64,000 bases of DNA from an uncultured Solirubrobacteraceae bacterium (GTDB lineage: Bacteria; Actinomycetota; Thermoleophilia; Solirubrobacterales; Solirubrobacteraceae). Below the pieces are notes generated by a model. It ran no database searches. It was not told the origin of the DNA and saw nothing but the letters and a program-made list of their open reading frames with translations. The DNA lies in contig CADCVQ010000054.1 of assembly GCA_902806175.1 (NCBI GenBank), forward strand, positions 62,001 to 126,000, given 5' to 3'. This document shows, in pieces, positions 8,361 to 20,432 of the stretch; position 1 is the stretch's first letter, and the number at the start of each line of letters is the position of its first letter. A program made the translations under genes and the position numbers.

Positions 8361-11300
8361 TCACACCGCTGCCACGGAGATGCGCAGCTCGCGCCCTTCG
8401 ATGCTCGCGACCTGGTCGCTGCCGTTGGCGCTGTAGCGCACCGCGACGGCGAGCACCTCGCCGCTGAGGTAGGCCTCGTGCACGCGCGCGGCATCGAGCA
8501 GCAGCTCGTCGCCGTCGAGCGTGAGCACGATCCGGTCGGCGATCTCCAGGCCCGCCTCGCGGCGCGCGAGCTGGACGGCGTGCACGATCTCGCGCGCGAG
8601 CCCCTCGCGGCGCAGGTCGTCGTCGACCGTGAGCTCCAGCGCGACGGCGTGCGACCCCTCGCGCTCGAGCTGGTAGCCGGCCAGCGGCGCCATCGCGAGC
8701 TGCAGGTCATCGGGCCCGAGCGTGTGGTCGTGGCCGTCGATGAAGATGCCGACCGGCCGGCCGGCGCGCAGCGCGTCGGCGACGTGGTCGGCGTCGAGTC
8801 CCGCGACGGCCTCGGCGACCTGCGGCATCGCCCTGCCGAAGCGCGGCCCCAGCGTGCGGTAGTTGGGCTTCAGCGTGTACGAGCCCAGCTCGTCGGCCTG
8901 CGAGACGAAGCGCACCTGCTTGACGTTGAGCTCGTCGCGCACGACGTCGCCGAGGCGCTCGATCGCGTCACGCTCGCGCCCCGCGGCCACGACGACGGCC
9001 TCGTGCAGCGGCTGGCGGACCTTGATCCTCGCGCCGCCGCGCGCGGCGAGCCCCAGGCGCACGGTCTCGCGAGCGATCGCCATCGCCTCCTCGAGCGTCT
9101 CGTCGCGCGGCTCGGGCTGGGGCCAGTCGGTGAGATGCACGCTCGGCTCGCTGCCGTCGAGGTTGTCGTAGATCTCGTCGGCGACGAACGGCGTGAACGG
9201 CGCGAGCAGCTGGGCGACGGTCACGAGGCTGCGGCGCAGGGTCTCGAGCGCGACCGCATCGCCGTCCCAGAAGCGCGACCGCGAGCGGCGCACGTACCAG
9301 TTGGAGAGATCGTCGACGAACTCGCTCACGGCGCGACCGGCGACCGTCGCATCGTAGGCGTCCATTCGCTCGGTGACGACCGTGACCGTCGCGCTCAGGC
9401 GCGAGCGGATCCAGCGGTCGAGGTCGGTCTCGCCTGCGGCGGCCGTGTGCGCGGAGGGTTCGTACATCGTCGCCACTCGGTAGGTATTCCAGAGCTGGCG
9501 CAGGAACAGCCGCACGCCCTCGCCGACGGCCTCGGGCGAGAAGAGGTAGCCGTCCCACGGCAGCTTGGAGGTGAAGAAATACCACCGCAGGGCATCGGCG
9601 CCGAAGCGATCGATGATCTCGTCGGGTGCGACGACGTTGCCCTGAGACTTGGACATCTTCTTGCCGTCAGGGTCGAGGATCAGGCCCAGGCAGACGACGT
9701 GGTCATAGGCCAGCTCGCCCCCGCGCAGCAGCGCGCTGACGGCGAGCAGCGAGTAGAACCAGCCGCGCGTCTGGTCAAGGGCCTCGCAAATGAAGTCCGC
9801 CGGATAGAGGGCCTCGATCTCCGCCTCGCCCTCGAACGGCGCGTGGCGCTGGGCGAACGGCATCGCCCCCGAGTCAAACCAGACGTCGATCACCTCTGGC
9901 ACGCGGGTGGCGGTCTCGCCGCACTCGCCGCAGGGGAAGGTCACATCGTCTACGAACGGGCGGTGGGGATCCTCCAGGAGGACGCCGGAGAGTTGCTCGA
10001 GCTCGGTGAGCGAGCCCACCACGGTGATGTGCTCGTTGGCGCACCGCCACACCGGCAGCGGGGTGCCCCAGAAGCGCTCGCGCGACAGCGCCCAGTCGAT
10101 GTTGTTCTCGAGCCAGTTGCCGAAGCGCCCGTGCTTGATGTGCTCCGGATGCCACGTCACCTGCTCGTTTGACGCCAGCAGCTTGTCGCGGATCTGCGAC
10201 GTGGCGATGTACCACGAGGGCTTGGCGTAGTAGAGCAGCGGCGTGCCACAGCGCCAGCAGTGCGGATAGGAATGCTCGTAGACCTCGGCGCGTAGCAGCC
10301 GGCCGCGCTTGCGCAGGTCCTCGACGAGGTCCTCGTCGGCGTCCTTGACGAAGCGCCCCTCGTAGGGCCCGATGCGGTCGTCGTACGTGCCGTCCAGGCG
10401 CACCGGGTTGACGACGTTCAGGCCGTACTGTTGGCCCAGACGAAAGTCGTCCTCGCCGAAGGCGATCGCCGTGTGGACGAGCCCGGTGCCGTCGTCGGCG
10501 GTGACGAAGTCGCCCAGCAGCACCGTGTGGCCGCGCTCGCCGTACTCCTCGGCGCCGAGGTACGGAAACGGCGGCTCGTAGCGCACGCCGTCGAGCGCCG
10601 CACCCGGGAAGCGGTCGATGATCTGCACGCCGTCGCGGTCGCCGAGGACCTTCTCGATGAGCGCCTCGGCGAGCACGACGGGGGCCTCGAGCTTCCCGGT
10701 CTTCGCGCGGACGTAGACGAGCTCGGGGTCGACGGCGACCGCCGCGTTGGAGACGAGCGTCCACGGCGTCGTCGTCCAGATGAGCAGCTCGTCGCCCGCC
10801 TGCAGCGGGCCGCCGTCCTGCGCCACGCGGAAGCGCACGTAGACCGACGGGTCCTTTACGTTCTTGTAGCCTTGGGCGACCTCGTGACTGGACAGCGCGG
10901 TCCCGCAGCGAGGGCAGTACGGCACGACGCGATGGCCCTCGTACAGCAGCCCCTTGTCGGCGATCTGCTTCAGCGACCACCAGACCGACTCGATGTACGT
11001 CGGATCCAGCGTGCGGTAGGCGTTGTCGAGATCCAGCCAGAAGCCGATCCGCTCGGTCAGCGCGTTCCAGTCCGCGAGGAAGTCGAAGACCGACTCGCGG
11101 CACTGCGCGTTGAAGGCCTCGATCCCGTAGGCCTCGATCTCGGCCTTGGACTTGATTCCGAGCTTCTTCTCGACGGCGATCTCGACCGGCAGGCCGTGCG
11201 TGTCCCAGCCGCCGCGGCGCTCGACGTAGTAGCCGCGCATCGTGCGAAAGCGCGGAAAGATGTCCTTGAAGGCGCGGCTCAGGACGTGGTGCACCCCGGG

Positions 11301-11462
11301 CGGCCCGTTCGCCGTCGGCGGACCCTCCCAGAAGACCCACGGCGGCGCGCCTTCGCGGCGGCGCAGCGACTCGCGGAACACGTCGCGCTCGCGCCAGCGC
11401 GCGAGCACCTGCTCCTCGAGCTGCGGGAACGAGACCTGCGCGTCGACGGGCCGCTTCGCCAT
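8361..11462 (-). CDS. ileS: Isoleucyl-tRNA synthetase (long form)
   Basis: Class I aminoacyl-tRNA synthetase that charges tRNA-Ile and edits misactivated valine. The 1033-residue product belongs to the long subgroup. Visible motifs: a variant HIGH element in NGPPGVHHVL near residue 55, a zinc-type CPRCG cluster near residue 185, a CGECG cluster in the insertion, and KKMSKSQGNV near residue 600. The long 612-codon frame on the opposite strand is a shadow of this gene. The start is an ATG with TACACT ending 6 bases upstream and no Shine-Dalgarno sequence, so the mRNA is probably leaderless. Confidence 0.96.
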   Translation of the reverse strand: MAKRPVDAQVSFPQLEEQVLARWRERDVFRESLRRREGAPPWVFWEGPPTANGPPGVHHVLSRAFKDIFPRFRTMRGYYVERRGGWDTHGLPVEIAVEKKLGIKSKAEIEAYGIEAFNAQCRESVFDFLADWNALTERIGFWLDLDNAYRTLDPTYIESVWWSLKQIADKGLLYEGHRVVPYCPRCGTALSSHEVAQGYKNVKDPSVYVRFRVAQDGGPLQAGDELLIWTTTPWTLVSNAAVAVDPELVYVRAKTGKLEAPVVLAEALIEKVLGDRDGVQIIDRFPGAALDGVRYEPPFPYLGAEEYGERGHTVLLGDFVTADDGTGLVHTAIAFGEDDFRLGQQYGLNVVNPVRLDGTYDDRIGPYEGRFVKDADEDLVEDLRKRGRLLRAEVYEHSYPHCWRCGTPLLYYAKPSWYIATSQIRDKLLASNEQVTWHPEHIKHGRFGNWLENNIDWALSRERFWGTPLPVWRCANEHITVVGSLTELEQLSGVLLEDPHRPFVDDVTFPCGECGETATRVPEVIDVWFDSGAMPFAQRHAPFEGEAEIEALYPADFICEALDQTRGWFYSLLAVSALLRGGELAYDHVVCLGLILDPDGKKMSKSQGNVVAPDEIIDRFGADALRWYFFTSKLPWDGYLFSPEAVGEGVRLFLRQLWNTYRVATMYEPSAHTAAAGETDLDRWIRSRLSATVTVVTERMDAYDATVAGRAVSEFVDDLSNWYVRRSRSRFWDGDAVALETLRRSLVTVAQLLAPFTPFVADEIYDNLDGSEPSVHLTDWPQPEPRDETLEEAMAIARETVRLGLAARGGARIKVRQPLHEAVVVAAGRERDAIERLGDVVRDELNVKQVRFVSQADELGSYTLKPNYRTLGPRFGRAMPQVAEAVAGLDADHVADALRAGRPVGIFIDGHDHTLGPDDLQLAMAPLAGYQLEREGSHAVALELTVDDDLRREGLAREIVHAVQLARREAGLEIADRIVLTLDGDELLLDAARVHEAYLSGEVLAVAVRYSANGSDQVASIEGRELRISVAAV

Positions 11463-11468
11463 GCGAGC

Positions 11469-11474
11469 AGTGTA
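11469..11474 (-). promoter_or_regulatory. -10 box of leaderless ileS
   Basis: TACACT on the minus strand, separated by 6 bases from the ileS ATG. That spacing would place the transcription start at or within a base or two of the start codon. Confidence 0.5.
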
Positions 11475-11506
11475 GGTCGGGTGGCGTCAGGCGCGGCGCT
11501 GGCCCG

Positions 11507-11938
11507 TCAGGCCGCGAGCTTGCGGCAGATGCTCGCGAGCGAGCGCTTCTCGCCTTCGTCGAGGACGGCGAACGTCTGCGCGACGCGCTCGCTGTGCTCG
11601 GGAAACAGCCGGTCGACGATCTCCGCGCCACGGTCGGTGATCGCGACGCTCGCCGCGCGGCGGTCGCTCGGCAGGCGCCGGCGATCCACGAGGTCGCGGC
11701 CCTCGAGCGTCGTGACGACCTCGGTCGCGTTGGCCTTCGACGTGCGCAGGCGGGCGCGCAGCAGGCGCAGCTCGAGCTCGCCGCCGGCGGTCGTGAGGAT
11801 CACGAGAACGGAGAAGCCCGTCGCCGACAGCCCCTCGCGCTCGAGGTCGGCGCTCAGCCGGCGGCGCACGGAGGCCTCAGCGCGCAGAAGCGAATCGAGG
11901 GCGCGATGCGCAAGCGGGTCGCCGGGAACGAGCGTCAT
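11507..11938 (-). CDS. MarR-family transcriptional regulator
   Basis: 143-residue winged-helix repressor-type protein. The recognition region LRTSKANATEVVTTLEGRDLV (from about residue 66) is followed by the wing RRRLPSDRRAASVAITDRG, the most conserved MarR element. N- and C-terminal helices would form the dimer interface. MarR proteins usually respond to small aromatic ligands or oxidants and repress nearby transporter or redox genes; no obvious target is adjacent. A TACGGT box lies 11 bases upstream. Confidence 0.88.
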   Translation of the reverse strand: MTLVPGDPLAHRALDSLLRAEASVRRRLSADLEREGLSATGFSVLVILTTAGGELELRLLRARLRTSKANATEVVTTLEGRDLVDRRRLPSDRRAASVAITDRGAEIVDRLFPEHSERVAQTFAVLDEGEKRSLASICRKLAA

Positions 11939-11989
11939 CCTGGCGCCGGACCGTACCGGCAGGAGCGGACGTGTCTGCCGGCCCCGCGC

Positions 11990-12865
11990 CTACGAGACCT
12001 GTGCCAGACCAGGACGACGGCGCACCGTCGCCTCGCGCGCGTTCAGGCGCGCCAGCAGGAGGTCGCGCGCGCCGATCGCGCTCGCGCCGAGCCGCGCTAC
12101 CGTCGACTGGTCGGACTCCGGCAGGGCGCCGCGAAAGTCGAGGATCTCGACATGTTCGGAGGCGCGCCGCGACTGGTAGGCGATCCTGCCCAGCGCGTCG
12201 AGCCATGCGCGGCGGCCGGTCAGGACGACGAGGCGCGGGTTGAGCGCCTGCAGGACGTGAGTCAGGCGCCCGGCGTCGAGCTCGGCGGTCAGCATGAGCG
12301 TCCGGATGCCGGCGCGCCGCAGGCAGAGCTCGAGCGCCTGGGCGTGCAGCGCGTCGATGTCACAGGGCGCGCTCGCGTCGAAGATCAGGACGCCCTCCAG
12401 CCGCGTGGCCCCGGGCGCCACGCGCTTGGCGGCGGCCAGCCAGCCGGTCGCCCAGCGACAGGCGAAGCCGAGCTCGGCGGAGGGCGGCTCGCCCTCGGGG
12501 CCGCCGAGGCCGTCGACCGCCGGCAGCAGCACCTCCTCCACGGTGCGCTCGACGGAGCGCACGGCAAGGCTCTCCTCGAGGATCCGGTCGGCCTCGATCT
12601 CCTCGAAGCGGCGCAGCGCGGAGCGCAGGCGCGTCGGCGAGGATGGGCCGCTGCCACGCTCGCGTGCGATCGAGATCGCCGACGACACGTTGTGCGTCTC
12701 CTCGAATGCCTGGCGCAGCGCTTCGAGCTCGGTGAGGTCGAATTGGCGGTGACCGCCCGCCGTGCGACGCGGCGTCGGATAGCCGAACCTGCGCTCCCAG
12801 GACCGCAGGGTGTTCGGGCTGACGCCCAACATGGCCGCGGCGGCATGGGTGCGTAGGACACTCAT
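11990..12865 (-). CDS. MerR-type regulator with degenerate B12-fold domain (paralogue 1)
   Basis: 291 residues. The N-terminal MerR helix-turn-helix is clear (VSPNTLRSWERRFGYP, residues 15-30, then GGHRQF). The rest resembles the helical cap plus Rossmann domain of CarH/LitR-type cobalamin photoreceptors. However, the cap reads ELGFACRWATGWL where CarH proteins carry the Glu-His pair, and the D/E-x-H-x-x-G cobalamin loop is replaced by CDIDAL. It therefore probably does not bind B12 through histidine. It shares FAxRWAxGWLxxAxRVAP with the second paralogue 0.6 kb away. Likely a transcription factor sensing something else. Confidence 0.8.
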   Translation of the reverse strand: MSVLRTHAAAAMLGVSPNTLRSWERRFGYPTPRRTAGGHRQFDLTELEALRQAFEETHNVSSAISIARERGSGPSSPTRLRSALRRFEEIEADRILEESLAVRSVERTVEEVLLPAVDGLGGPEGEPPSAELGFACRWATGWLAAAKRVAPGATRLEGVLIFDASAPCDIDALHAQALELCLRRAGIRTLMLTAELDAGRLTHVLQALNPRLVVLTGRRAWLDALGRIAYQSRRASEHVEILDFRGALPESDQSTVARLGASAIGARDLLLARLNAREATVRRRPGLAQVS

Positions 12866-12961
12866 CGTGAGTTGTTATCGAGGCTTGCCTACCGTTGCGC
12901 AGGCGGCCACGAGACCTCCTGCGGGCAAGTCGATTGCTGGAGGTTACGCGATTGCGGCCAA

Positions 12962-13447
12962 CTAAGAAAGTATGAGTAGCGCGGCGTGCGGGGGACCACA
13001 GGGGCCGATGCGCGCCTTGAAGCGCACACCGAACTCCTGGCGCGGGCGCACGACCGTGCTGCGCGGCTCCCCTGAGCCGCTCGCAACCTCGACCAGCAGC
13101 GCCAGCAGGTTCTCCGCGCTGGGTGCATTGGCGTCCGCCGGGACGAGAAAGTCGGCGACGTGCTTGTTGACCGCGTGTGTCTCGTCGATGCCGAGCAGGT
13201 CCTCGGCTGCGGCGGAGACCGCGCAGACCGACAGCGTCGTGTCGATCACGAGAAACGGCTCGTCGCGGCGGGGCGCGAGATCGGCGCTCGCCTGCAGCAC
13301 GAGGCCGAGGCCGCAGTGCCCGCAGACACGCGAGGGCGCCGCGCTCCCAACGGGTGCGGGCGGTAGCGCGCAGTGCCCGCAGAACGACACGACGTCGAGC
13401 CCGCGCTCGTCGACTTCGACCGGGCGCAGTGCGCGCAGGCGCCTCAT
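12962..13447 (-). CDS. Zinc-ribbon plus PAS-like sensor protein
   Basis: 161 residues. Two CGHC knuckles (Cys23/Cys26 and Cys42/Cys45) form a probable zinc ribbon, followed by a region (residues 60-160) with the strand-helix pattern of a PAS fold, including FLVIDTTLSVCAVS and AAEDLLGIDE. No kinase or output domain is attached, so it may act as a protein partner. Its ATG overlaps the stop of the upstream MerR gene (ATGA), implying coupled translation and joint function. The ligand is unknown. Confidence 0.7.
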   Translation of the reverse strand: MRRLRALRPVEVDERGLDVVSFCGHCALPPAPVGSAAPSRVCGHCGLGLVLQASADLAPRRDEPFLVIDTTLSVCAVSAAAEDLLGIDETHAVNKHVADFLVPADANAPSAENLLALLVEVASGSGEPRSTVVRPRQEFGVRFKARIGPCGPPHAALLILS

Positions 13448-14349
13448 CCCTGCGCCTCCCGGCGCTCGTCGTCAGCATCGAGGACCGACACGGCGGCGAC
13501 CTCGAGCACGCGCGTGACCTGGCGGTCGTCGATCATGGCCAGCAGCTGGCGGTGTGCGGCGAACGGGGGGTCGGGCAGCATCCGGGTGCCGGTCGTGCGG
13601 ACCTTCGCGCCGTGCTGTGAGCGGCGAAAGAGGGCCACCGGCAGCGGCCCGGCAGCAGCGCGCACGCGGTAGGCCCAGAGAGCGACGTCGTCGTCGGGCA
13701 GGTGCGCGCCGGCGATCACCACCGCGTCGGGTGACACCGACTCGACGACGTCGGACAGGCCCGAGACGCCGCCGACGGGCAGCGCCATGATCCGCGCGCC
13801 CGAGCGGCCGCAGAACAACTCGAACGCGCGCACGGCCAGCGCGTCGGGATCGAGCTCGTTGCGCGTGGCATCGCCGACGAGGATCGCCAGGCCGCGTACG
13901 GGGGGTGGCGCCACGCGCTGCGCGCGGCGCAGCCAGCCGTCCGCCCAGCGCGCCGCGAACGCCCACGGCGCGCTGTCGGTGCCATAGCGCTGCCCGAGCT
14001 CGGCGAGCGAGGGCAGCAGCACCTCCTCGACCGCGCGCTCGACCGAACGCAGCGCCAGCGCGGACTCCATCGCGCTGTCGGCCCGATCGAGCTCGAAGCC
14101 GCCCAGCGCGCCGACGAGCGTATGGGTGTCGGTGCTGAGCGCCTCGCGCGCCCGGCTGATGGCGGAGGAGATCGAGAGGCCTTGCTGGAGGGCGTCGCGC
14201 AGCGCCGCGACCTCACCGTGCGTGTACAGACGGTGGCGTCCCGCGGACCGCTGCGGCTTGGGGTAGCCGAAGCGGCGCTCCCAGGCACGGAGCGTGTTCG
14301 GGCTCACGTTCAGCAGCGCAGCCGCCTCACTCGTCTTCAAGGTCCGCAT
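13444..14349 (-). CDS. MerR-type regulator with degenerate B12-fold domain (paralogue 2)
   Basis: 301 residues. MerR DNA-binding helices at the N-terminus (VSPNTLRAWERRFGYP, residues 15-30) and a C-terminal half of the same build as paralogue 1. The cobalamin loop is replaced by NELDPDAL and the cap Glu-His is missing (WAFAARWADGWL). Coupled by a 4-base overlap to the zinc-ribbon/PAS gene. An inverted repeat just upstream of the start is a possible autoregulatory site. Alternative reading: a B12-independent relative of CarH that has kept only the dimer/tetramer scaffold. Confidence 0.8.
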   Translation of the reverse strand: MRTLKTSEAAALLNVSPNTLRAWERRFGYPKPQRSAGRHRLYTHGEVAALRDALQQGLSISSAISRAREALSTDTHTLVGALGGFELDRADSAMESALALRSVERAVEEVLLPSLAELGQRYGTDSAPWAFAARWADGWLRRAQRVAPPPVRGLAILVGDATRNELDPDALAVRAFELFCGRSGARIMALPVGGVSGLSDVVESVSPDAVVIAGAHLPDDDVALWAYRVRAAAGPLPVALFRRSQHGAKVRTTGTRMLPDPPFAAHRQLLAMIDDRQVTRVLEVAAVSVLDADDERREAQG

Positions 14350-14359
14350 GCCAGAACAT

Positions 14360-14383
14360 CATCGGGGCTAGCCCAACCCGATG
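14360..14383. promoter_or_regulatory. Inverted repeat upstream of MerR paralogue 2
   Basis: CATCGGG and CCCGATG form 7-bp arms, and nested inside is the palindrome GGGCTAGCCC (14365-14374). It begins 10 bases before the regulator's start codon on the minus strand. Position and dyad symmetry suit an operator for a MerR dimer, possibly autoregulation; binding is inferred. Confidence 0.45.
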
Positions 14384-14708
14384 CAAACCTGCCACGGTGC
14401 CTTTGCACACCTTCAGAGGGCAAATAACGCTCGTACCCCGTGGTGTTGCGTAAAGCCGGACGATTGTCGTCGTCAGCGCCACTCGCGGCGGGTTGGCGAC
14501 CGGCGGGCGGCAGTGGCCGCGACGTTCGCGGCACGCCATCGCGCGATGGCCGAAGGCGCAGCCGCCGCAGCGTCTTTAGGCCGCAAACCGATGCACTTTG
14601 ATCGACGCTCGTTACCCGCCCGCGGAAGGTCCCGGCGAAAAGAGCTGGGCTTCAGATCGCTGGTCTACTTTAGGCGCCCGTTCACTGTCAACACCCCCGG
14701 AGGTCGAG
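14384..14708. other. Intergenic region, regulatory but gene-free
   Basis: 325 bases between the divergent MerR gene and the small peptide. I see no coding frame with biased third positions. It is lower in G+C than its surroundings in its first 80 bases, which suits promoter DNA for the MerR operon. TACTTT at 14666-14671 inside CTACTTTAGG is a candidate -10 for the peptide gene; the same CTTTAGG string recurs at about 14574 and 14834. No known riboswitch consensus was recognised. Confidence 0.4.
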
Positions 14709-14801
14709 ATGACCCGCTTCAAGAGCCGCCTGTACCAGCCCGCCCTCGTTGCCGCGATCGCCGTCCTCGCCGCCAACGGCGGTGCCTTCCGCATCACCTG
14801 A
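14709..14801 (+). CDS. 30-residue membrane-active peptide with strong SD
   Basis: A 30-codon ORF preceded by GGAGG (14699-14703) at 5 bases' spacing. The peptide has a basic start (MTRFKSRLYQ) and a hydrophobic alanine-rich segment (PALVAAIAVLAANGGAF), i.e. a possible single-span micro-protein or leader peptide. Codon third positions are almost all G/C. It sits 41 bases before the HD-GYP gene on the same strand. I do not recognise a family. Confidence 0.55.
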   Translation: MTRFKSRLYQPALVAAIAVLAANGGAFRIT

Positions 14802-14830
14802 TCCTCAGGCCTACGGGCCACTCCGGCAGC

Positions 14831-14836
14831 TACCTT
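14831..14836 (+). promoter_or_regulatory. -10 box of leaderless HD-GYP gene
   Basis: TACCTT separated by 6 bases from the GTG start. It resembles the CTACTTTAGG element upstream of the small peptide, so both genes may use the same sigma factor. Confidence 0.45.
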
Positions 14837-14842
14837 TAGGAC

Positions 14843-16231
14843 GTGGAGGACCCTCCGAAGGCCGCGCACCCCGGGGTCGCCGTCGCGGCGTCGCTGCTGC
14901 TGTTGCTTGCCGCGCTGCCGGTCCTGCTGCTCTCCTCGACCGCGGCGCTGTTCGAGCCGCTGACGTTCGTGCTCATGGGTGGCGCGATCGTCAGCGTGCT
15001 GTACGCGTCCGATTGGGAGGGGATCGTCGACATCTCGGCGGCGTTCGTGTGCTTCATGCTCGCCGCAGCGTTCGTCGGACCGATCGCCGCGTTCTCGATC
15101 GCGATCATCGCCGAGGCGATCACCTGGGCCGTGCGGCGCTACCGGCTGGTCGCGCTGCCGGTCAACCTCGCCGCGACCGCGGTTCCGAGTCTGACCGCCG
15201 CGCTCGCCTTCCAAGGGCTCACCGGCGGGCTCGAAGAGGGGAGCCTGCGCGACATCGCGCTGCTGGCGGCCGTCGCGATCGGCTTTCTCGTGTTCAACTA
15301 CGCGCTGCTCAGCGCGCTTGCGACGCTGCTTGACGGCGGCCGCCTGCGCGACGCGCTGCGCCCGCCGCGGGCGCTGCTTCCGTCGCTGGCGATCACGGTG
15401 GCGCTCACGGTCTCGATCGCCGCCGTGTTCGCGCAGTTCGGTCTCGCCGCGGGCGTCTTCCTCGTGCTGATCATCGTCGCCTTCAGCTACATGTCGCGCC
15501 TGGTCGTCATCGCGCGCGAGCGCACGGCGCAGTACGCGGCGTTGTCGTGGGGCGTGCTGTCCTCGCTCGTGCGCTCGCTGGACCGGCGCGACGACCGCAC
15601 CGCGCGCCACAGCGCCGCGGTCGCTGCCTTCGCGCGCGACATCGCGCTCGAGTGCGGGATGAGCAAGCGCGAGGCCGAGCTGGCGCACACCGCCGGGCTG
15701 CTGCACGACATCGGCCGCTTCGCGCTGCCCGACCGCGTGATGGAGCGCCACGGGACGTTGACGTCAGCCGACTGGGATGCGATCCACCAGCACCCCGAGC
15801 TCGGTGCCGAGATGCTGCGCGATCTCGGCGTCTATGGCCCGGTCGCCCAGATCGTCCGCGCGCACCACGAACGGATCGACGGCCGCGGGTATCCCAACCG
15901 CCTGAAGGGCGACGAGATCCCCGAGATCGCGCGGATCGTCGCGGTTGCGGAGGTCTACGACACGCTGACCGCCGAGGACACCTACCGCGACCGTATGACC
16001 TCCTTTCAGGCGATGACCGAGCTGCGGCGCGTCGCCGGACGTCAGCTCGACGAGCGCTTCGTCGAGGCGCTCGCCGAGCTGCTGGCCGGCCGCGACCTCG
16101 AGTATCGCCACGCCGACACCGCCGACTTCGACACCGAGCTTGCGATCGAGGGGCGCATCGCCGACTCGGTGGCGACGGACTCCGCCGCCGGCTCGGGCGG
16201 CACGAGCGCCATGACGAGCAAGCCGGCGTAG
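14843..16231 (+). CDS. Membrane-bound HD-GYP domain phosphodiesterase
   Basis: 462 residues. The N-terminal ~220 residues contain about six to eight hydrophobic segments (MASE-like sensor). The cytoplasmic HD-GYP domain follows, with RTARHSAAVA near residue 253, GLLHDIGRFALPD near 282, and HHERIDGRGYP near 337, so the HD metal pair and the GYP motif are intact. HD-GYP proteins hydrolyse cyclic di-GMP to GMP and control lifestyle switching. The start is a GTG 6 bases after a TACCTT box. The C-terminal tail is Ser/Ala-rich and disordered-looking. Confidence 0.88.
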   Translation: MEDPPKAAHPGVAVAASLLLLLAALPVLLLSSTAALFEPLTFVLMGGAIVSVLYASDWEGIVDISAAFVCFMLAAAFVGPIAAFSIAIIAEAITWAVRRYRLVALPVNLAATAVPSLTAALAFQGLTGGLEEGSLRDIALLAAVAIGFLVFNYALLSALATLLDGGRLRDALRPPRALLPSLAITVALTVSIAAVFAQFGLAAGVFLVLIIVAFSYMSRLVVIARERTAQYAALSWGVLSSLVRSLDRRDDRTARHSAAVAAFARDIALECGMSKREAELAHTAGLLHDIGRFALPDRVMERHGTLTSADWDAIHQHPELGAEMLRDLGVYGPVAQIVRAHHERIDGRGYPNRLKGDEIPEIARIVAVAEVYDTLTAEDTYRDRMTSFQAMTELRRVAGRQLDERFVEALAELLAGRDLEYRHADTADFDTELAIEGRIADSVATDSAAGSGGTSAMTSKPA

Positions 16232-16319
16232 CGTCGGCCGCCTGGACGAGCTCGACCTCTCGCTGCGCCTGTCGCACGCGCAGGAGCAGGAGCGCGCGTG
16301 AAGGTGATGGAGACGACGA

Positions 16320-17679
16320 TCAGCGCGATCGAGGACGGGCTGCGCGAGCGGGCGCACGAGCCACCGCCGCTCCTGTGACCGCCCAGGAGCCGCCGGCAAA
16401 GCGCCAGCCGAGCGTGATCAGGCGCACGCCGACGAGCGCCAGCAGCCCGGCCCAGACGCCGGTCAGGCCCCACTCCAGCGCGAGCGCGAGCAGCGCGATC
16501 GGGACGTAGACGCACAGCCCGGCGAGCAGCATCGACGCCGCGAGATAGCGCGTGTCGCCCGCGCCGATGAGGATCCCGTCGAGGCCGAAGACGACGGCGG
16601 CGGCGGGCTGCATGAGCGCAAGCAGCGTCCAGATCGCGCGGGCGCGCTCGATCACGGCAGGATCGTCGGTGAAGGCCTGCGGCAGCGCGTGCCAGCGCGA
16701 GGAGCAGCGCGCCGAACAGGCAGCCCGCGGCGAGCGACCAGGCGAGCGAGCGCAGCCCCACGGCGCGCGCCGCGCCGGCGTCGCCGGCCCCGAGCGCGCG
16801 ACCGACGAGCACCTGCGCCGCGATCGCGATCGCGTCGAGCACGAGCGCGGCGAAGACGAACAGGCCCATCGCGATCTGGTGCGCGGCCAGCGAGCTCTCG
16901 CCGATGCGTGCGATGACCGCGCTCGCCGTCGCAAACGCCGTCAGCAACGCGGCCGACCGCACGAAGAGCTCGCCGGAGATGCGGACGAGCGGCTGCATGA
17001 GCAGGCGGCGCGGTCGGCGGCTGCTGCGCGTGCCGGCGCCTGATTGCCGCGGGCGCAGCAGCAGCCAGGCGAACGCCGCGCCCATGCCGAGCTGCGCGAT
17101 CACCGTTCCCGCCGCCGAGCCGTCGAGGCCGAGCTCGAGGCCGTAGACGAACCACACCTCGAGCCCGACGTTCGCGAGCTGCGCGGCGACGACGATCAGC
17201 AGCGGCGTGCGCAGGTCGCCGACCCCGCGCAGGTAGCCCTGGCCCGCGAGTGCGATCAGCGCCATCGGCAGGCCGAGCGCGCTGATGCGCAGGTAGCGCT
17301 CGGCCATCGCTGCCGTCTCCCCCGCACCGCCGAACACCGCGACGAGCGGCGCCGCGAGCACGGCGCAGGCGAGCGCGAGCGCGACACCGATCGCGCTCGC
17401 AAGCCAGAGCGCCTGCGCTGCGAGCTCGCCGGCGCGAGCGTGGTCGCCGGCACCGTGCAGCCGCGCGACCTGCGCCGTGGTGGCGTAGGTGAGAAAGACG
17501 CAGAGCGAGACGAGCGTCGTGAGCACGGTCGCGGCGATCGCGAGCGCCGCGAGCTGCGGGGTACCGAGGTGTCCGACGATGGCCGTGTCGACGAGCAGGT
17601 ACAGGGGCTCCGCCGCGAGCGCGCCGAGTGCCGGGATCGCCAGGCGCCGGATCTCGCGATCGTGAGGCGATCGCAGCAC
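16320..17679 (-). pseudogene. MATE family efflux transporter, frameshifted
   Basis: Drug/metabolite:cation antiporter of the MATE family. The first ~330 residues from the GTG at 17679 read in one frame (TAIVGHLGTPQLAAL near residue 30, GQGYLRGVGDLRTP near 140). Around 16686-16690 the homology jumps to the neighbouring frame and resumes with LPQAFTDDPAVIERARAIWTL, ending at 16320. One extra base (or two missing) in the GCGCG context explains it. This is either a genuine disabling mutation or a sequence error; the rest of the gene looks well preserved, so the lesion is recent or artefactual. Confidence 0.8.
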
Positions 17680-17702
17680 GCGCCGGACTCTACGATCCCG
17701 CC

Positions 17703-18179
17703 GTGGGTCAAACCGCAAGAGCGCGTCGCGCCGCGTCACGCACGCTCGCCGTCCTCGGCCTGCTGCTGCTCGGCGGCTGCGGGAAGGAGCGCGAGCCGGT
17801 TCCACAGGCGTGCTTCGGCGAGCCGGCAGCGATGCTGTCGACGCTGCGCCAGGGCCCGCCGATCGTGCTCGAGGGCCGAACGCGGGTGTCGCGCTGTGTC
17901 AGCGCCGCCCGCACGGAGGGCGACCTGCAGTCGCTCGGCGTGCTGTTCGTACGCGTCGCCGACATGCTGCGCGCGCAGGCCTCGGCCGACCCTGAGGCGG
18001 CGTTCGCGCTCGGGTATCTCACGGGCGCCGTGACGCGCGGCTCGGCGTCGAGCAGCGGCAGCATCGCCGCGCAGCTCGCGCGCCGCGTCGACCAGGTCGC
18101 GAGCCTCGACCCGGGCGCGAGCGCCGCCGCCGTCTCGGCCCTGGCCCGCGGGCGCCTTGCCGGGGCACGCGACGGATGA
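17703..18179 (+). CDS. Hypothetical lipoprotein
   Basis: 158 residues from a GTG. The N-terminus has Arg residues, a hydrophobic stretch and the lipobox LLLGGC (Cys26), so it should be lipid-anchored outside the membrane. The mature part is mostly helical with two further cysteines (CFGEP near residue 37 and SRCVSAARTEGDL near 64). Its stop overlaps the start of the alpha/beta-hydrolase-like gene (ATGA), indicating coupled expression. It diverges from the MATE gene with 23 bases between starts. Function unknown. Confidence 0.72.
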   Translation: MGQTARARRAASRTLAVLGLLLLGGCGKEREPVPQACFGEPAAMLSTLRQGPPIVLEGRTRVSRCVSAARTEGDLQSLGVLFVRVADMLRAQASADPEAAFALGYLTGAVTRGSASSSGSIAAQLARRVDQVASLDPGASAAAVSALARGRLAGARDG

Positions 18180-19015
18180 AGCTTCGCCTGTATCACCACC
18201 GCGACGGCGCGCGCATCGCCTACCGCGAAGCGGGTGTCGGACCGGGCCTGTGCCTCGTGCACAGCGCGGCCCTGTCGCACCGCGAGTTCGCGCCGCTCGT
18301 CGAGCACCTGGCCGATCGCTTCCGGGTCGTGCTGCCCGACCTGCCGCTGCACGGCGACTCCGAGGATCGCCCGCGCCACCCCTACACGCAGGCCTGGCTC
18401 GCGGAGGTGATGGCCGCGTTCTGCCGCGAGACGTGCGGGCCGCATCCGATCGTCGGCGGTCATGGCGCCGGCGCCGAGATCCTCCTGCGCGCGACGGTCA
18501 CCGGCCAGATCGCGCCCTCGCGCCTGGTGCTCATGCCCAACCGCCTGCACCGCCCGCCGATCCGGTCGCGGATGGCCGTGCCGCTGCGCGCACTGGCGCC
18601 CGCGGCAGCGCTGCCCGGGCTGGACCGCGCCGCCTCGCGGGCGGTGCGGCTCGCCTACCGCCCCGAGCACGGGATGAAGCTCACCGCGCGCGGCAATCCC
18701 GCGGCCCGCGACCTGCTGCGCCACGCGACGGCGGACGTCGCCGGCAACGCGAACCTCGCGCGCTCGTGGTCGCGCTGGGTGCGCCGCTGGCCGGGCGGCG
18801 CGCAGAGCGACCTGCTCGAGGCCTATGGCCGGATCGAGGCGCGCGTCCTGCTGCTGTGGGCCGACCGCGACCGCTACCACCCGCTCGCCGGCGCCGAGGA
18901 GGCGCTGGACCTGCTGCCAGACGCGCAGCTGCGCGTGCTGCCCGGCACCGGCTTTCTCATCGCCTACGACGACCCCGTCGGCGTCGCGCGCGAGCTGACG
19001 GCGTTCTGCCTGTAG
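18176..19015 (+). CDS. Alpha/beta-hydrolase fold protein lacking catalytic residues
   Basis: 279 residues with the canonical fold pattern: oxyanion strand LCLVHSAALSHREF near residue 26, LPDLPLHGDSE near 54, and LLLWADRDRYHP near 225. The nucleophile elbow reads VGGHGAGAE, so Gly97 stands where Ser should be, and the catalytic-His region reads GTGFLIAYDDP with Phe in place of His. Both key residues are lost while the rest is conserved, suggesting a non-enzymatic or binding role. Translationally coupled to the upstream lipoprotein. Confidence 0.78.
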   Translation: MKLRLYHHRDGARIAYREAGVGPGLCLVHSAALSHREFAPLVEHLADRFRVVLPDLPLHGDSEDRPRHPYTQAWLAEVMAAFCRETCGPHPIVGGHGAGAEILLRATVTGQIAPSRLVLMPNRLHRPPIRSRMAVPLRALAPAAALPGLDRAASRAVRLAYRPEHGMKLTARGNPAARDLLRHATADVAGNANLARSWSRWVRRWPGGAQSDLLEAYGRIEARVLLLWADRDRYHPLAGAEEALDLLPDAQLRVLPGTGFLIAYDDPVGVARELTAFCL

Positions 19016-19029
19016 GCGCCGCCTAAGGC

Positions 19030-20355
19030 TCAGGCGGCCGAGCCGCGCGCCATCTTGCGCAGGTCCATCGCCTCGTCGAACGTCGCCTCGTCGACGCCGT
19101 GCTCGAGCGCGACCTCGCGCAGCATCCGTCCCGAGGCGGCTGCCTCCTTGACGATCGCGCCGGCCTTGTCGTAGCCGATGTACGGGTTCAGCGCGGTGGC
19201 GGCGGCGAGCGTCGACTCGGCCGAGCGCCGGCAGCCGTCGAGGTTGGCCTCGATGCCCACGACGCACTTGTCGGCGAACAGGCGGCTCGTCGTCGAGAGC
19301 AGGTGGATCGAGGCCAGCAGGTTGCGCGCGATCAGCGGGATGCGGACGTTGAGCTCGAAGTTGCCCTGCAGGCCGCCGATCGTGATCGCGGTGTCGTTGC
19401 CGATGACCTGGGCGCCGACCTGCATCACGACCTCGGGAATGACCGGGTTGACCTTGCCCGGCATGATCGACGAGCCCTTCTGCAGCTCGGGCAGGAGGAT
19501 CTCGCCGATCCCGGCGCGCGGCCCCGAGCCCATCAGCGCGAGGTCCTGGGCGATCTTCGTCAGCGAGACCGCGACGACCTTCAGCGCGCCCGACAGCTCG
19601 ACGAGCGCGTCGCGATTGGCCTGCGCCTCGAAGGGATCCTCCGGCGGCGCGACCTCGAGGCCGCTGGACTCGGTCAGCCGCGCGCGGATGCGCTCGGCGA
19701 ACTGCGGGTGCGTGTTCAGCCCGTTGCCGACGGCGGTACCACCGAGCGGGATCTGAGCGACCTGAGGCAGGGCGTTGCGCACGCGGCGGGCGCCGAGGCG
19801 CACCTGCGCGGCGTAGCCGGCGAACTCCTGGCCGAGCGTGACGGGGACGGCGTCCATGAGGTGCGTGCGGCCGGACTTCACGACGCCCTCGAACTCCGTG
19901 GCCTTGCCCGCGAACGCCTGCTCGAGGTACTCGAGCGCGGGCAGCAGCGCGTTCGTCGCCTCGTCGAGCGCGGCGAGGTGCACGGCGCTGGGGAACACGT
20001 CGTTGGACGACTGGCCCATGTTCACGTGGTCGTTGGGATGCGCGCCCGCGCCCGCGAGGTTCGCGATGACCTCGTTGGCGTTCATGTTCGTGGAGGTGCC
20101 CGAGCCGGTCTGGAAGACGTCGATCGGAAACTGGTCGTCGTGGTTGCCGGCGGCGATCTCGTCGGCGCTGCGCCCGATGCGCTCCGCGAGCTCGCCGTCG
20201 AGCTTGCCGAGGTCGGCGTTCACGCGCGCCGCGGCCCCTTTGATCGCGGCGAGCCAGCGCACGACGCTGACCGGCACGCGCTCGCCGGAGACGGGGAAGT
20301 TCTCGACCGCCTTGGCCGTCTCGCCACCCCACAACTGCTGGTCAGCCACGCTCAT
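19030..20355 (-). CDS. fumC: Fumarate hydratase, class II
   Basis: Iron-independent fumarase of the citric-acid cycle (fumarate to L-malate), a homotetramer. The 441-residue product shows GSGTSTNMNANEV near residue 83, SGRTHLMDAVP near 160, and the superfamily signature GSSIMPGKVNP near 295. It is about 20 residues shorter than common FumC, mainly at the ends, with all motifs intact. A Shine-Dalgarno-like GGAGGA lies about 10 bases upstream. Convergent with the hydrolase gene, 14 bases apart. Confidence 0.95.
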   Translation of the reverse strand: MSVADQQLWGGETAKAVENFPVSGERVPVSVVRWLAAIKGAAARVNADLGKLDGELAERIGRSADEIAAGNHDDQFPIDVFQTGSGTSTNMNANEVIANLAGAGAHPNDHVNMGQSSNDVFPSAVHLAALDEATNALLPALEYLEQAFAGKATEFEGVVKSGRTHLMDAVPVTLGQEFAGYAAQVRLGARRVRNALPQVAQIPLGGTAVGNGLNTHPQFAERIRARLTESSGLEVAPPEDPFEAQANRDALVELSGALKVVAVSLTKIAQDLALMGSGPRAGIGEILLPELQKGSSIMPGKVNPVIPEVVMQVGAQVIGNDTAITIGGLQGNFELNVRIPLIARNLLASIHLLSTTSRLFADKCVVGIEANLDGCRRSAESTLAAATALNPYIGYDKAGAIVKEAAASGRMLREVALEHGVDEATFDEAMDLRKMARGSAA

Positions 20356-20432
20356 CTCTGCGTCCTCCGCGATCGCGAGTCATCGGCCGCCAACGCTATC
20401 GAGCCGCGCGCGCCGGCCACATCTCCGATCCT

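What the first reader, a model, noticed from the sequence alone, without database searches (positions are those of the whole stretch)
11990..14349. Twin MerR regulators with ligand-less B12 folds around a zinc-ribbon/PAS protein
Both regulators keep the MerR helices and the CarH/LitR-like C-terminal architecture but lack the histidines that bind cobalamin, and share their own signature FAxRWAxGWLxxAxRVAP. Paralogue 2 is translationally coupled to a protein with two CGHC knuckles and a PAS-like domain. A repurposed B12-photoreceptor scaffold with a separate sensor partner would be a new type of regulatory module.
Basis: partly seen in the sequence, partly recalled or inferred. Interest (0 to 1): 0.6.

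Follow-up and report, generated by a model that had tools for sequence, protein, structure and literature searches.

The report
B12-less CarH regulators with PAS partner
A soil-type actinobacterium carries two gene regulators built like a vitamin-B12 light sensor but missing the residues that hold B12, with a separate zinc-and-PAS protein beside them that probably does the sensing; the plan resembles known Pseudomonas and E. coli light switches, but the partner and the linked HD-GYP gene look new.

Summary
R2 (301 aa), ZP (161 aa) and R1 (291 aa) are real genes; R2 and ZP overlap by ATGA. The R2 model matches full-length CarH (Z 15.3 over 255 residues). None of 44 aligned R1/R2 proteins has CarH's W131, E141 or H142, and 1 of 44 has H177. 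ZP has four invariant zinc-ribbon cysteines and a PAS fold. ZP directly follows R2 in 30 of 30, but sits elsewhere in 4 of the 6 others. So the tight unit is HD-GYP / R2, usually with ZP. R1 is an older paralogue that also occurs alone, or with ZP and no R2. A TGCA-N21/22-TGCA box lies 82-85 nt before R2 in 18 of 29 relatives and marks mainly that promoter genome-wide, suggesting local autoregulation; the window has a variant. Best reading: R2 is a B12-independent CarH-type regulator and ZP its sensor partner, an inference. Precedents exist (class II LitR with short LOV, BluR with BluF), so this is a new variant, not a new type. The signal, the ZP-R2 contact and the output are untested.

The parts
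13444..14349 (-). R2: MerR regulator with CarH-like four-helix bundle and Rossmann-like C-terminal fold, lacking cobalamin residues (301 aa)
   Evidence: ORF; Pfam; model pLDDT 85.9, pTM 0.70; CarH 5c8d_F Z 15.3, 255 aligned, rmsd 6.2; residues
12962..13447 (-). ZP: zinc ribbon (C23-x2-C26, C42-x2-C45) plus PAS domain (161 aa), ATGA overlap with R2
   Evidence: cysteines invariant in 16 rows; invariant in 27 rows; model pLDDT 86.9, pTM 0.82; PAS folds Z about 9 to 10.7
11990..12865 (-). R1: older CarH-like MerR paralogue, also without cobalamin residues (291 aa)
   Evidence: separate clade
14843..16231 (+). Divergent membrane-anchored HD-GYP protein (462 aa), strongest genomic partner of R2
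   Evidence: Pfam HD_5 E 6e-39; HD at 288 and HHERIDGRGYP at 341, four hydrophobic segments before residue 227; adjacency
14382..14407 (-). Operator-like TGCA-N18-TGCA element 58 nt upstream of R2 (TGCAAA...TTTGCA arms); window-genus variant of a conserved box
   Evidence: family box
13444..13447 (-). ATGA overlap of R2 stop and ZP start
   Evidence: identical-coordinate overlap in 11 of 15 named loci with both genes, short gaps in the other 4 (L077 set by hand)

Best explanation
HD-GYP / R2-ZP is a small signalling module in Solirubrobacteraceae. R2 is a CarH/LitR-scaffold transcription factor that no longer uses cobalamin; its old cofactor face is closed by aromatic residues (inferred). It binds a TGCA-type site in the R2-HD-GYP divergent region and controls its own operon and probably HD-GYP (inferred from a conserved, position-fixed site). 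ZP, made from the same mRNA, is a dedicated partner: its PAS and zinc ribbon receive a signal and alter DNA binding by R2 through direct contact (inferred, by analogy with PmSB-LOV on PmlR2 and BluF on BluR). HD-GYP, with the canonical motif, would turn this into a change in c-di-GMP (inferred). R1 is an older paralogue with its own conserved promoter element, usually at the fumC-ileS locus; in a second family it pairs with ZP without R2. Shown here: gene structure, folds, residue loss, co-occurrence, site conservation. Not shown: binding, signal, direction of regulation.
For: R2 fold like full-length CarH without its cobalamin residues. ZP PAS fold and invariant cysteines. R2-ZP adjacent in 30 of 30 R2 genomes among 151. 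In those 151 genomes a strict ZP (44 genomes, E up to 1.1e-8) lies within 300 bp of R2 or R1 in 41, within about 2.3 kb in 2 and on a separate contig in 1, while about 30 genomes have R1 or R2-like proteins without ZP: ZP goes with the MerR, not the reverse. HD-GYP divergent in 29 of 30 and in 6 of 6 further R2 genomes. In G025, HD-GYP/R2-ZP and R1 are at different places. Box upstream of R2 in 18 of 29, all 82-85 nt before the start; shuffles mean 0.245, max 3. Genome-wide pattern in 15 genomes: 9 genomes hit the R2 promoter, only 2 sites lie elsewhere. Precedents: PMC9758184, PMC3509220.
Against: No contact, ligand or regulation was measured, and no complex could be modelled. In 4 of 6 g25 R2 genomes ZP is not next to R2 but elsewhere, and g22/g25 genomes carry ZP paralogues with no MerR neighbour, so ZP may have other partners. 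The exact box is absent in 11 of 29, including the window genus (a relaxed variant is in 3 of those 5), and in all four relocated-ZP loci, L177 and L178. An unanchored inverted-repeat scan was mostly no better than shuffles. The box pattern was chosen after seeing the alignment. G034 has R2 without the divergent HD-GYP.
Confidence: 0.5

Rival explanations
1. R2 and R1 still sense a small molecule of their own in the altered groove (heme, bilin or another ligand), and ZP is a co-transcribed accessory or target, not their sensor.
For: The two-domain B12 fold is fully kept, which pure protein-partner regulation would not need. [quoted passage not shown] 21 of 28 R1 rows keep a His near the loop. 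R1 often occurs without any ZP.
Against: W131, H132, E141 and H142 positions are gapped or replaced in 44 of 44 and H177 in 43 of 44; R2 has no His within 5 columns of 142 in 16 of 16. It does not explain why strict ZP nearly always sits beside such a MerR.
Confidence: 0.22
2. ZP acts on the HD-GYP protein or on another target, and R2 merely controls expression of both.
For: The HD-GYP/R2 link outlasts the ZP/R2 link (four g25 loci). ZP paralogues exist without a MerR neighbour. PAS proteins have many partners.
Against: Family f2 has ZP next to R1 with no HD-GYP in the fetched neighbourhood, so ZP does not need HD-GYP; 10 of 13 f2 ZP genes without R2 lie within 300 bp of R1.
Confidence: 0.18
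3. R1 and R2 bind cobalamin through non-canonical residues and are ordinary B12 light sensors.
For: Overall fold and NCBIfam CarH similarity (69.9 and 67.7 bits). Some CarH-like proteins vary at H132 (PMC11796333, passages).
Against: The residues reported there as proven AdoCbl ligands (W131, E141, H142, H177) are lost; CarH score is far under the cut-off of 400.
Confidence: 0.05

Closest known systems
Class II LitR PmlR2 with short-LOV PmSB-LOV (Pseudomonas mendocina; PMC9758184)
   Same: LitR/CarH-type MerR without B12 use, adjacent gene for a small PAS-superfamily sensor (LOV); there the lit sensor binds the regulator and blocks DNA binding.
   Different: ZP has a zinc ribbon and matches general PAS folds; it was not shown to be LOV. 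R2 keeps a clear Rossmann-like fold. The neighbour is HD-GYP, not the light-response genes reported there.
BluR with BluF, and MlrA with YdaM/YciR (Escherichia coli; PMC3509220)
   Same: MlrA/BluR-type MerR regulators controlled by a separate protein, with links to c-di-GMP domain proteins.
   Different: Partners are BLUF-EAL and GGDEF/EAL proteins; here a zinc-ribbon PAS protein, with the c-di-GMP-type enzyme encoded divergently.
Thermus CarH (class I LitR; PDB 5c8d)
   Same: Domain order and fold.
   Different: All cobalamin-contact residues tested are lost.
AppA SCHIC with PpsR; AerR with CrtJ (PMC9144470; PDB 4hh3)
   Same: B12-type fold and a PAS-containing regulator bind each other.
   Different: There the PAS protein binds DNA; here the B12-type protein does.

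Membership tests
CarH / class I LitR (AdoB12 photoreceptor) | N-terminal MerR DNA-binding domain | tested here: met
   Pfam MerR above cut-off in R1 and R2
CarH / class I LitR (AdoB12 photoreceptor) | Four-helix bundle plus Rossmann B12-binding fold | tested here: met
   R2 model against 5c8d_F Z 15.3, rmsd 6.2, 255 aligned; Pfam B12-binding_2 only sub-threshold
CarH / class I LitR (AdoB12 photoreceptor) | AdoCbl residues W131, E141, H142, H177 | tested here: not met
   0, 0, 0 and 1 of 44 rows; residues named in PMC11796333
CarH / class I LitR (AdoB12 photoreceptor) | NCBIfam CarH equivalog cut-off 400 bits | tested here: not met
   69.9 and 67.7 bits
CarH / class I LitR (AdoB12 photoreceptor) | Binds AdoCbl and responds to light | not testable with these tools
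   needs purified protein
Class II LitR with short LOV | B12-less LitR gene next to a small PAS/LOV sensor gene | tested here: met
   R2-ZP in 30 of 30 R2 genomes among 151
Class II LitR with short LOV | Partner is an FMN-binding LOV domain with adduct cysteine | tested here: inconclusive
   ZP gives sub-threshold general PAS hits; PYP and other PAS folds rank first, two LOV structures at Z 9.0; adduct position not tested
Class II LitR with short LOV | Sensor binds regulator and changes DNA binding | not testable with these tools
   no complex prediction available
MlrA / BluR | NCBIfam MlrA cut-off 417 bits | tested here: not met
   29 and 36.1 bits
MlrA / BluR | Partner with BLUF-EAL or GGDEF/EAL domains | tested here: not met
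   ZP is zinc ribbon plus PAS only
PAS domain proteins | PAS fold | tested here: met
   5iu1_A Z 10.7, 96 aligned, rmsd 2.7; PYP about 10
HD-GYP phosphodiesterases | HD and GYP motifs | tested here: met
   window protein, and 23 of 23 loci checked; enzyme activity not tested

The most novel reading that the evidence does not exclude
A CarH scaffold with its cofactor pocket filled has become a protein-sensing regulator. A zinc-ribbon PAS anti-repressor (ZP), sometimes one of several ZP paralogues acting in trans, carries a redox, metal or ligand signal to it, and the regulator sets c-di-GMP through a divergent HD-GYP enzyme. This would be an actinobacterial counterpart, with a new kind of partner, of the LOV/LitR and BluF/BluR switches.
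Probability: 0.27. Interest if true: 0.65.

Novelty: new variant of a known kind. Interest (0 to 1): 0.5.

Why it matters
It would be a further case of the B12-photoreceptor scaffold losing its cofactor and passing to control by a separate sensor protein, with a partner type (zinc ribbon plus PAS) that I did not find described in 7 literature searches. It gives a concrete four-gene module, a candidate operator and natural variants (ZP moved away, R1 absent, HD-GYP absent) with which the partner model can be tested.

Tried and rejected
Cobalamin photoreceptor: rejected on residues and profile score. Three-gene cassette as the unit: rejected because R1 is dispensable or elsewhere. Operator as an RNA hairpin: inner arms matched no better than re-dealt arms (48 of 108 against a mean of 48.3), so read as a DNA site. 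An unanchored inverted-repeat scan was uninformative: only L010 and L021 beat all 60 shuffles. A first regulon pattern with spacer 20-24 was mis-spaced for genus g22; with 18-20 replaced it. Both promoter patterns (R2 box; R1 TGC-N9-TGC-N5-TTGC, 14 of 25) were chosen after seeing the alignments, so the shuffle counts are optimistic. No box was found before R2 in L173-L178. A natural MerR-PAS fusion was not searched for by a dedicated query. The tree (quick method) has a very long CarH branch, so its root is unsure; only the R1/R2 split (99) is used. A wider search with A3 gave full-length (strict) ZP only in f1 and f2 among the listed rows of the class sample (399 genomes) and in 4 of 296 in the phylum sample, all f1; the rest of the 232 class hits are a shorter, weaker match (about 36-50 bits in the rows listed) to a different zinc-ribbon/PAS family.

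Full report
What is there. Three minus-strand genes, R2 (13444-14349), ZP (12962-13447) and R1 (11990-12865), are as described. R2 and ZP overlap by ATGA. The window lies in a 4.12 Mb draft genome of 183 contigs; its nearest named relatives are Solirubrobacteraceae, Conexibacter and Paraconexibacter.

R1 and R2. Pfam gives MerR above cut-off and B12-binding_2 just below it; NCBIfam CarH gives about 70 bits against a cut-off of 400. The AlphaFold model of R2 (26-row alignment, pLDDT 85.9, pTM 0.70) aligns to full-length CarH 5c8d_F at Z 15.3 (rmsd 6.2, 255 residues) and to photocobilins, AerR, the AppA SCHIC domain and methionine synthase. Thermus CarH was fetched, and W131, H132, E141, H142 and H177 were confirmed in its sequence. 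In 28 R1 and 16 R2 rows, W131 and H132 fall in a gap in all; E141 is W in all R2 and mostly L, Y or F in R1; H142 is A or S in R2 and mostly G or E in R1; H177 is His in 1 of 44. The signature helix (FAxRWAxGWL) is the helix that carries E141/H142 in CarH, so aromatic filling of the cofactor site is likely, though I had no coordinates to measure it. R1 and R2 are separate clades (support 99).

ZP. Four cysteines of a zinc ribbon are invariant in 27 rows across two families. C75 and C150 are further invariant cysteines in the 16 rows; C150 stays nearly invariant in the wider set, C75 does not. The model (pLDDT 86.9, pTM 0.82) matches PAS domains (Z 9 to 10.7). Zinc binding is inferred from the cysteine pattern.

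Neighbourhood. Among 151 genomes (own plus 150 relatives), 30 hold a close R2 (E up to 2.5e-94). All 30 have ZP next to it, and in 23 of 30 an R1-like gene follows directly, as I read the coordinates. A full-length HD-GYP orthologue faces R2 in 29 of 30 (split over two contigs in G079; G062 read coordinates; the exception is G034). Outside these 30, one genome (G073) has the orthologue; its contig ends just where R2 would start. Six further R2 genomes of genus g25, outside the first set, all have the HD-GYP gene facing R2, but in four of them ZP is not between R2 and R1 and is found elsewhere in the genome. A seventh g25 genome with ZP, G403, has only R1. In family f2 the ancestral-looking order is fumC, ZP-R1, often marR, then ileS, without R2 or HD-GYP; f3 and many f1 genomes have R1 alone. 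In G025 the HD-GYP/R2-ZP unit and R1 lie on different contigs.

Candidate operators. Upstream of R2, TGCA-N21/22-TGCA occurs in 18 of 29 regions (of the 30 R2 loci, L016 was not picked up by the script), always starting 82-85 nt before the start codon (shuffle mean 0.245, max 3). The window genus lacks it; with spacing relaxed to 17-23, 21 of 29 match (shuffle mean 0.63, max 5), three of the five g1 members among them, with TGCA 57-58 nt upstream. In 15 genomes the stricter pattern TTGCA-N18-20-TGTGCAA hits the R2 promoter in 9 and only two other places, one of them 0.5 kb beyond HD-GYP in G078 (reversed-pattern controls 7 hits in all). R1 promoters carry a different element, TGC-N9-TGC-N5-TTGC, 55-58 nt upstream in 14 of 25, present also where ZP is absent. 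These fit local autoregulation by each protein, but which protein binds which site is inferred.

Mechanism and precedent. PMC9758184 (abstract and passages read) shows that lit PmSB-LOV binds the class II LitR PmlR2 and removes it from DNA, and counts E. coli BluR with BluF as another MerR light system. PMC3509220 (passages) describes BluF contacts with both domains of BluR, and links of MlrA to c-di-GMP enzymes. PMC9144470 (passages) describes B12-type folds binding a PAS-containing regulator. By analogy, ZP is best read as the protein-borne sensor of R2 and, in f2, of R1. The dependence runs one way: strict ZP is almost always beside such a MerR, whereas R1 often lacks ZP. The signal is unknown; redox, zinc or a PAS ligand are all open.

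Novelty. The general idea, a CarH-type MerR freed from B12 and run by a separate sensor, is known. New here, as far as searches show, are the zinc-ribbon PAS partner, its conserved coupling with R2 and the divergent HD-GYP link in Solirubrobacterales. That library lacks most subscription journals, and the main LitR classification paper (PMC6256028) was not held.

Noticed in passing
G genomes of the class sample; examples L127:2787-3233 and L128:2862-3308: A related, shorter zinc-ribbon/PAS family (HFICPQCGN...) gives a weak match, usually once per genome, in most of the 232 of 399 class genomes with a hit; it may be the stock from which ZP arose.
   Followed up: partly
L119, L120, L122-L125, L136, L155-L157, L160-L162, L164: ZP paralogues with no MerR neighbour in genera g22 and g25.
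   Followed up: partly
G000:C77:8009-8668, G000:C160:45099-45872, G000:C129:4549-5403 (L003-L005): Three more distant CarH-like MerR proteins in the same genome (E 3e-10 to 1e-7); whether they keep cobalamin residues was not checked.
   Followed up: no
L033 and L044 (G128): A genome assigned to family f2 carries an f1-type HD-GYP/R2-ZP unit, suggesting transfer or misplacement.
   Followed up: no
L178:6231-8570: In G025 a second, different HD-GYP-like ORF lies tail to tail with ZP.
   Followed up: no
G078:C53:114338-114369 (L142): A second copy of the R2-type box about 0.5 kb beyond the HD-GYP gene.
   Followed up: no
window 8361-20379: The fumC to ileS stretch (fumC, alpha/beta hydrolase, MATE, HD-GYP, R2-ZP-R1, MarR, ileS) is conserved across the family.
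   Followed up: yes
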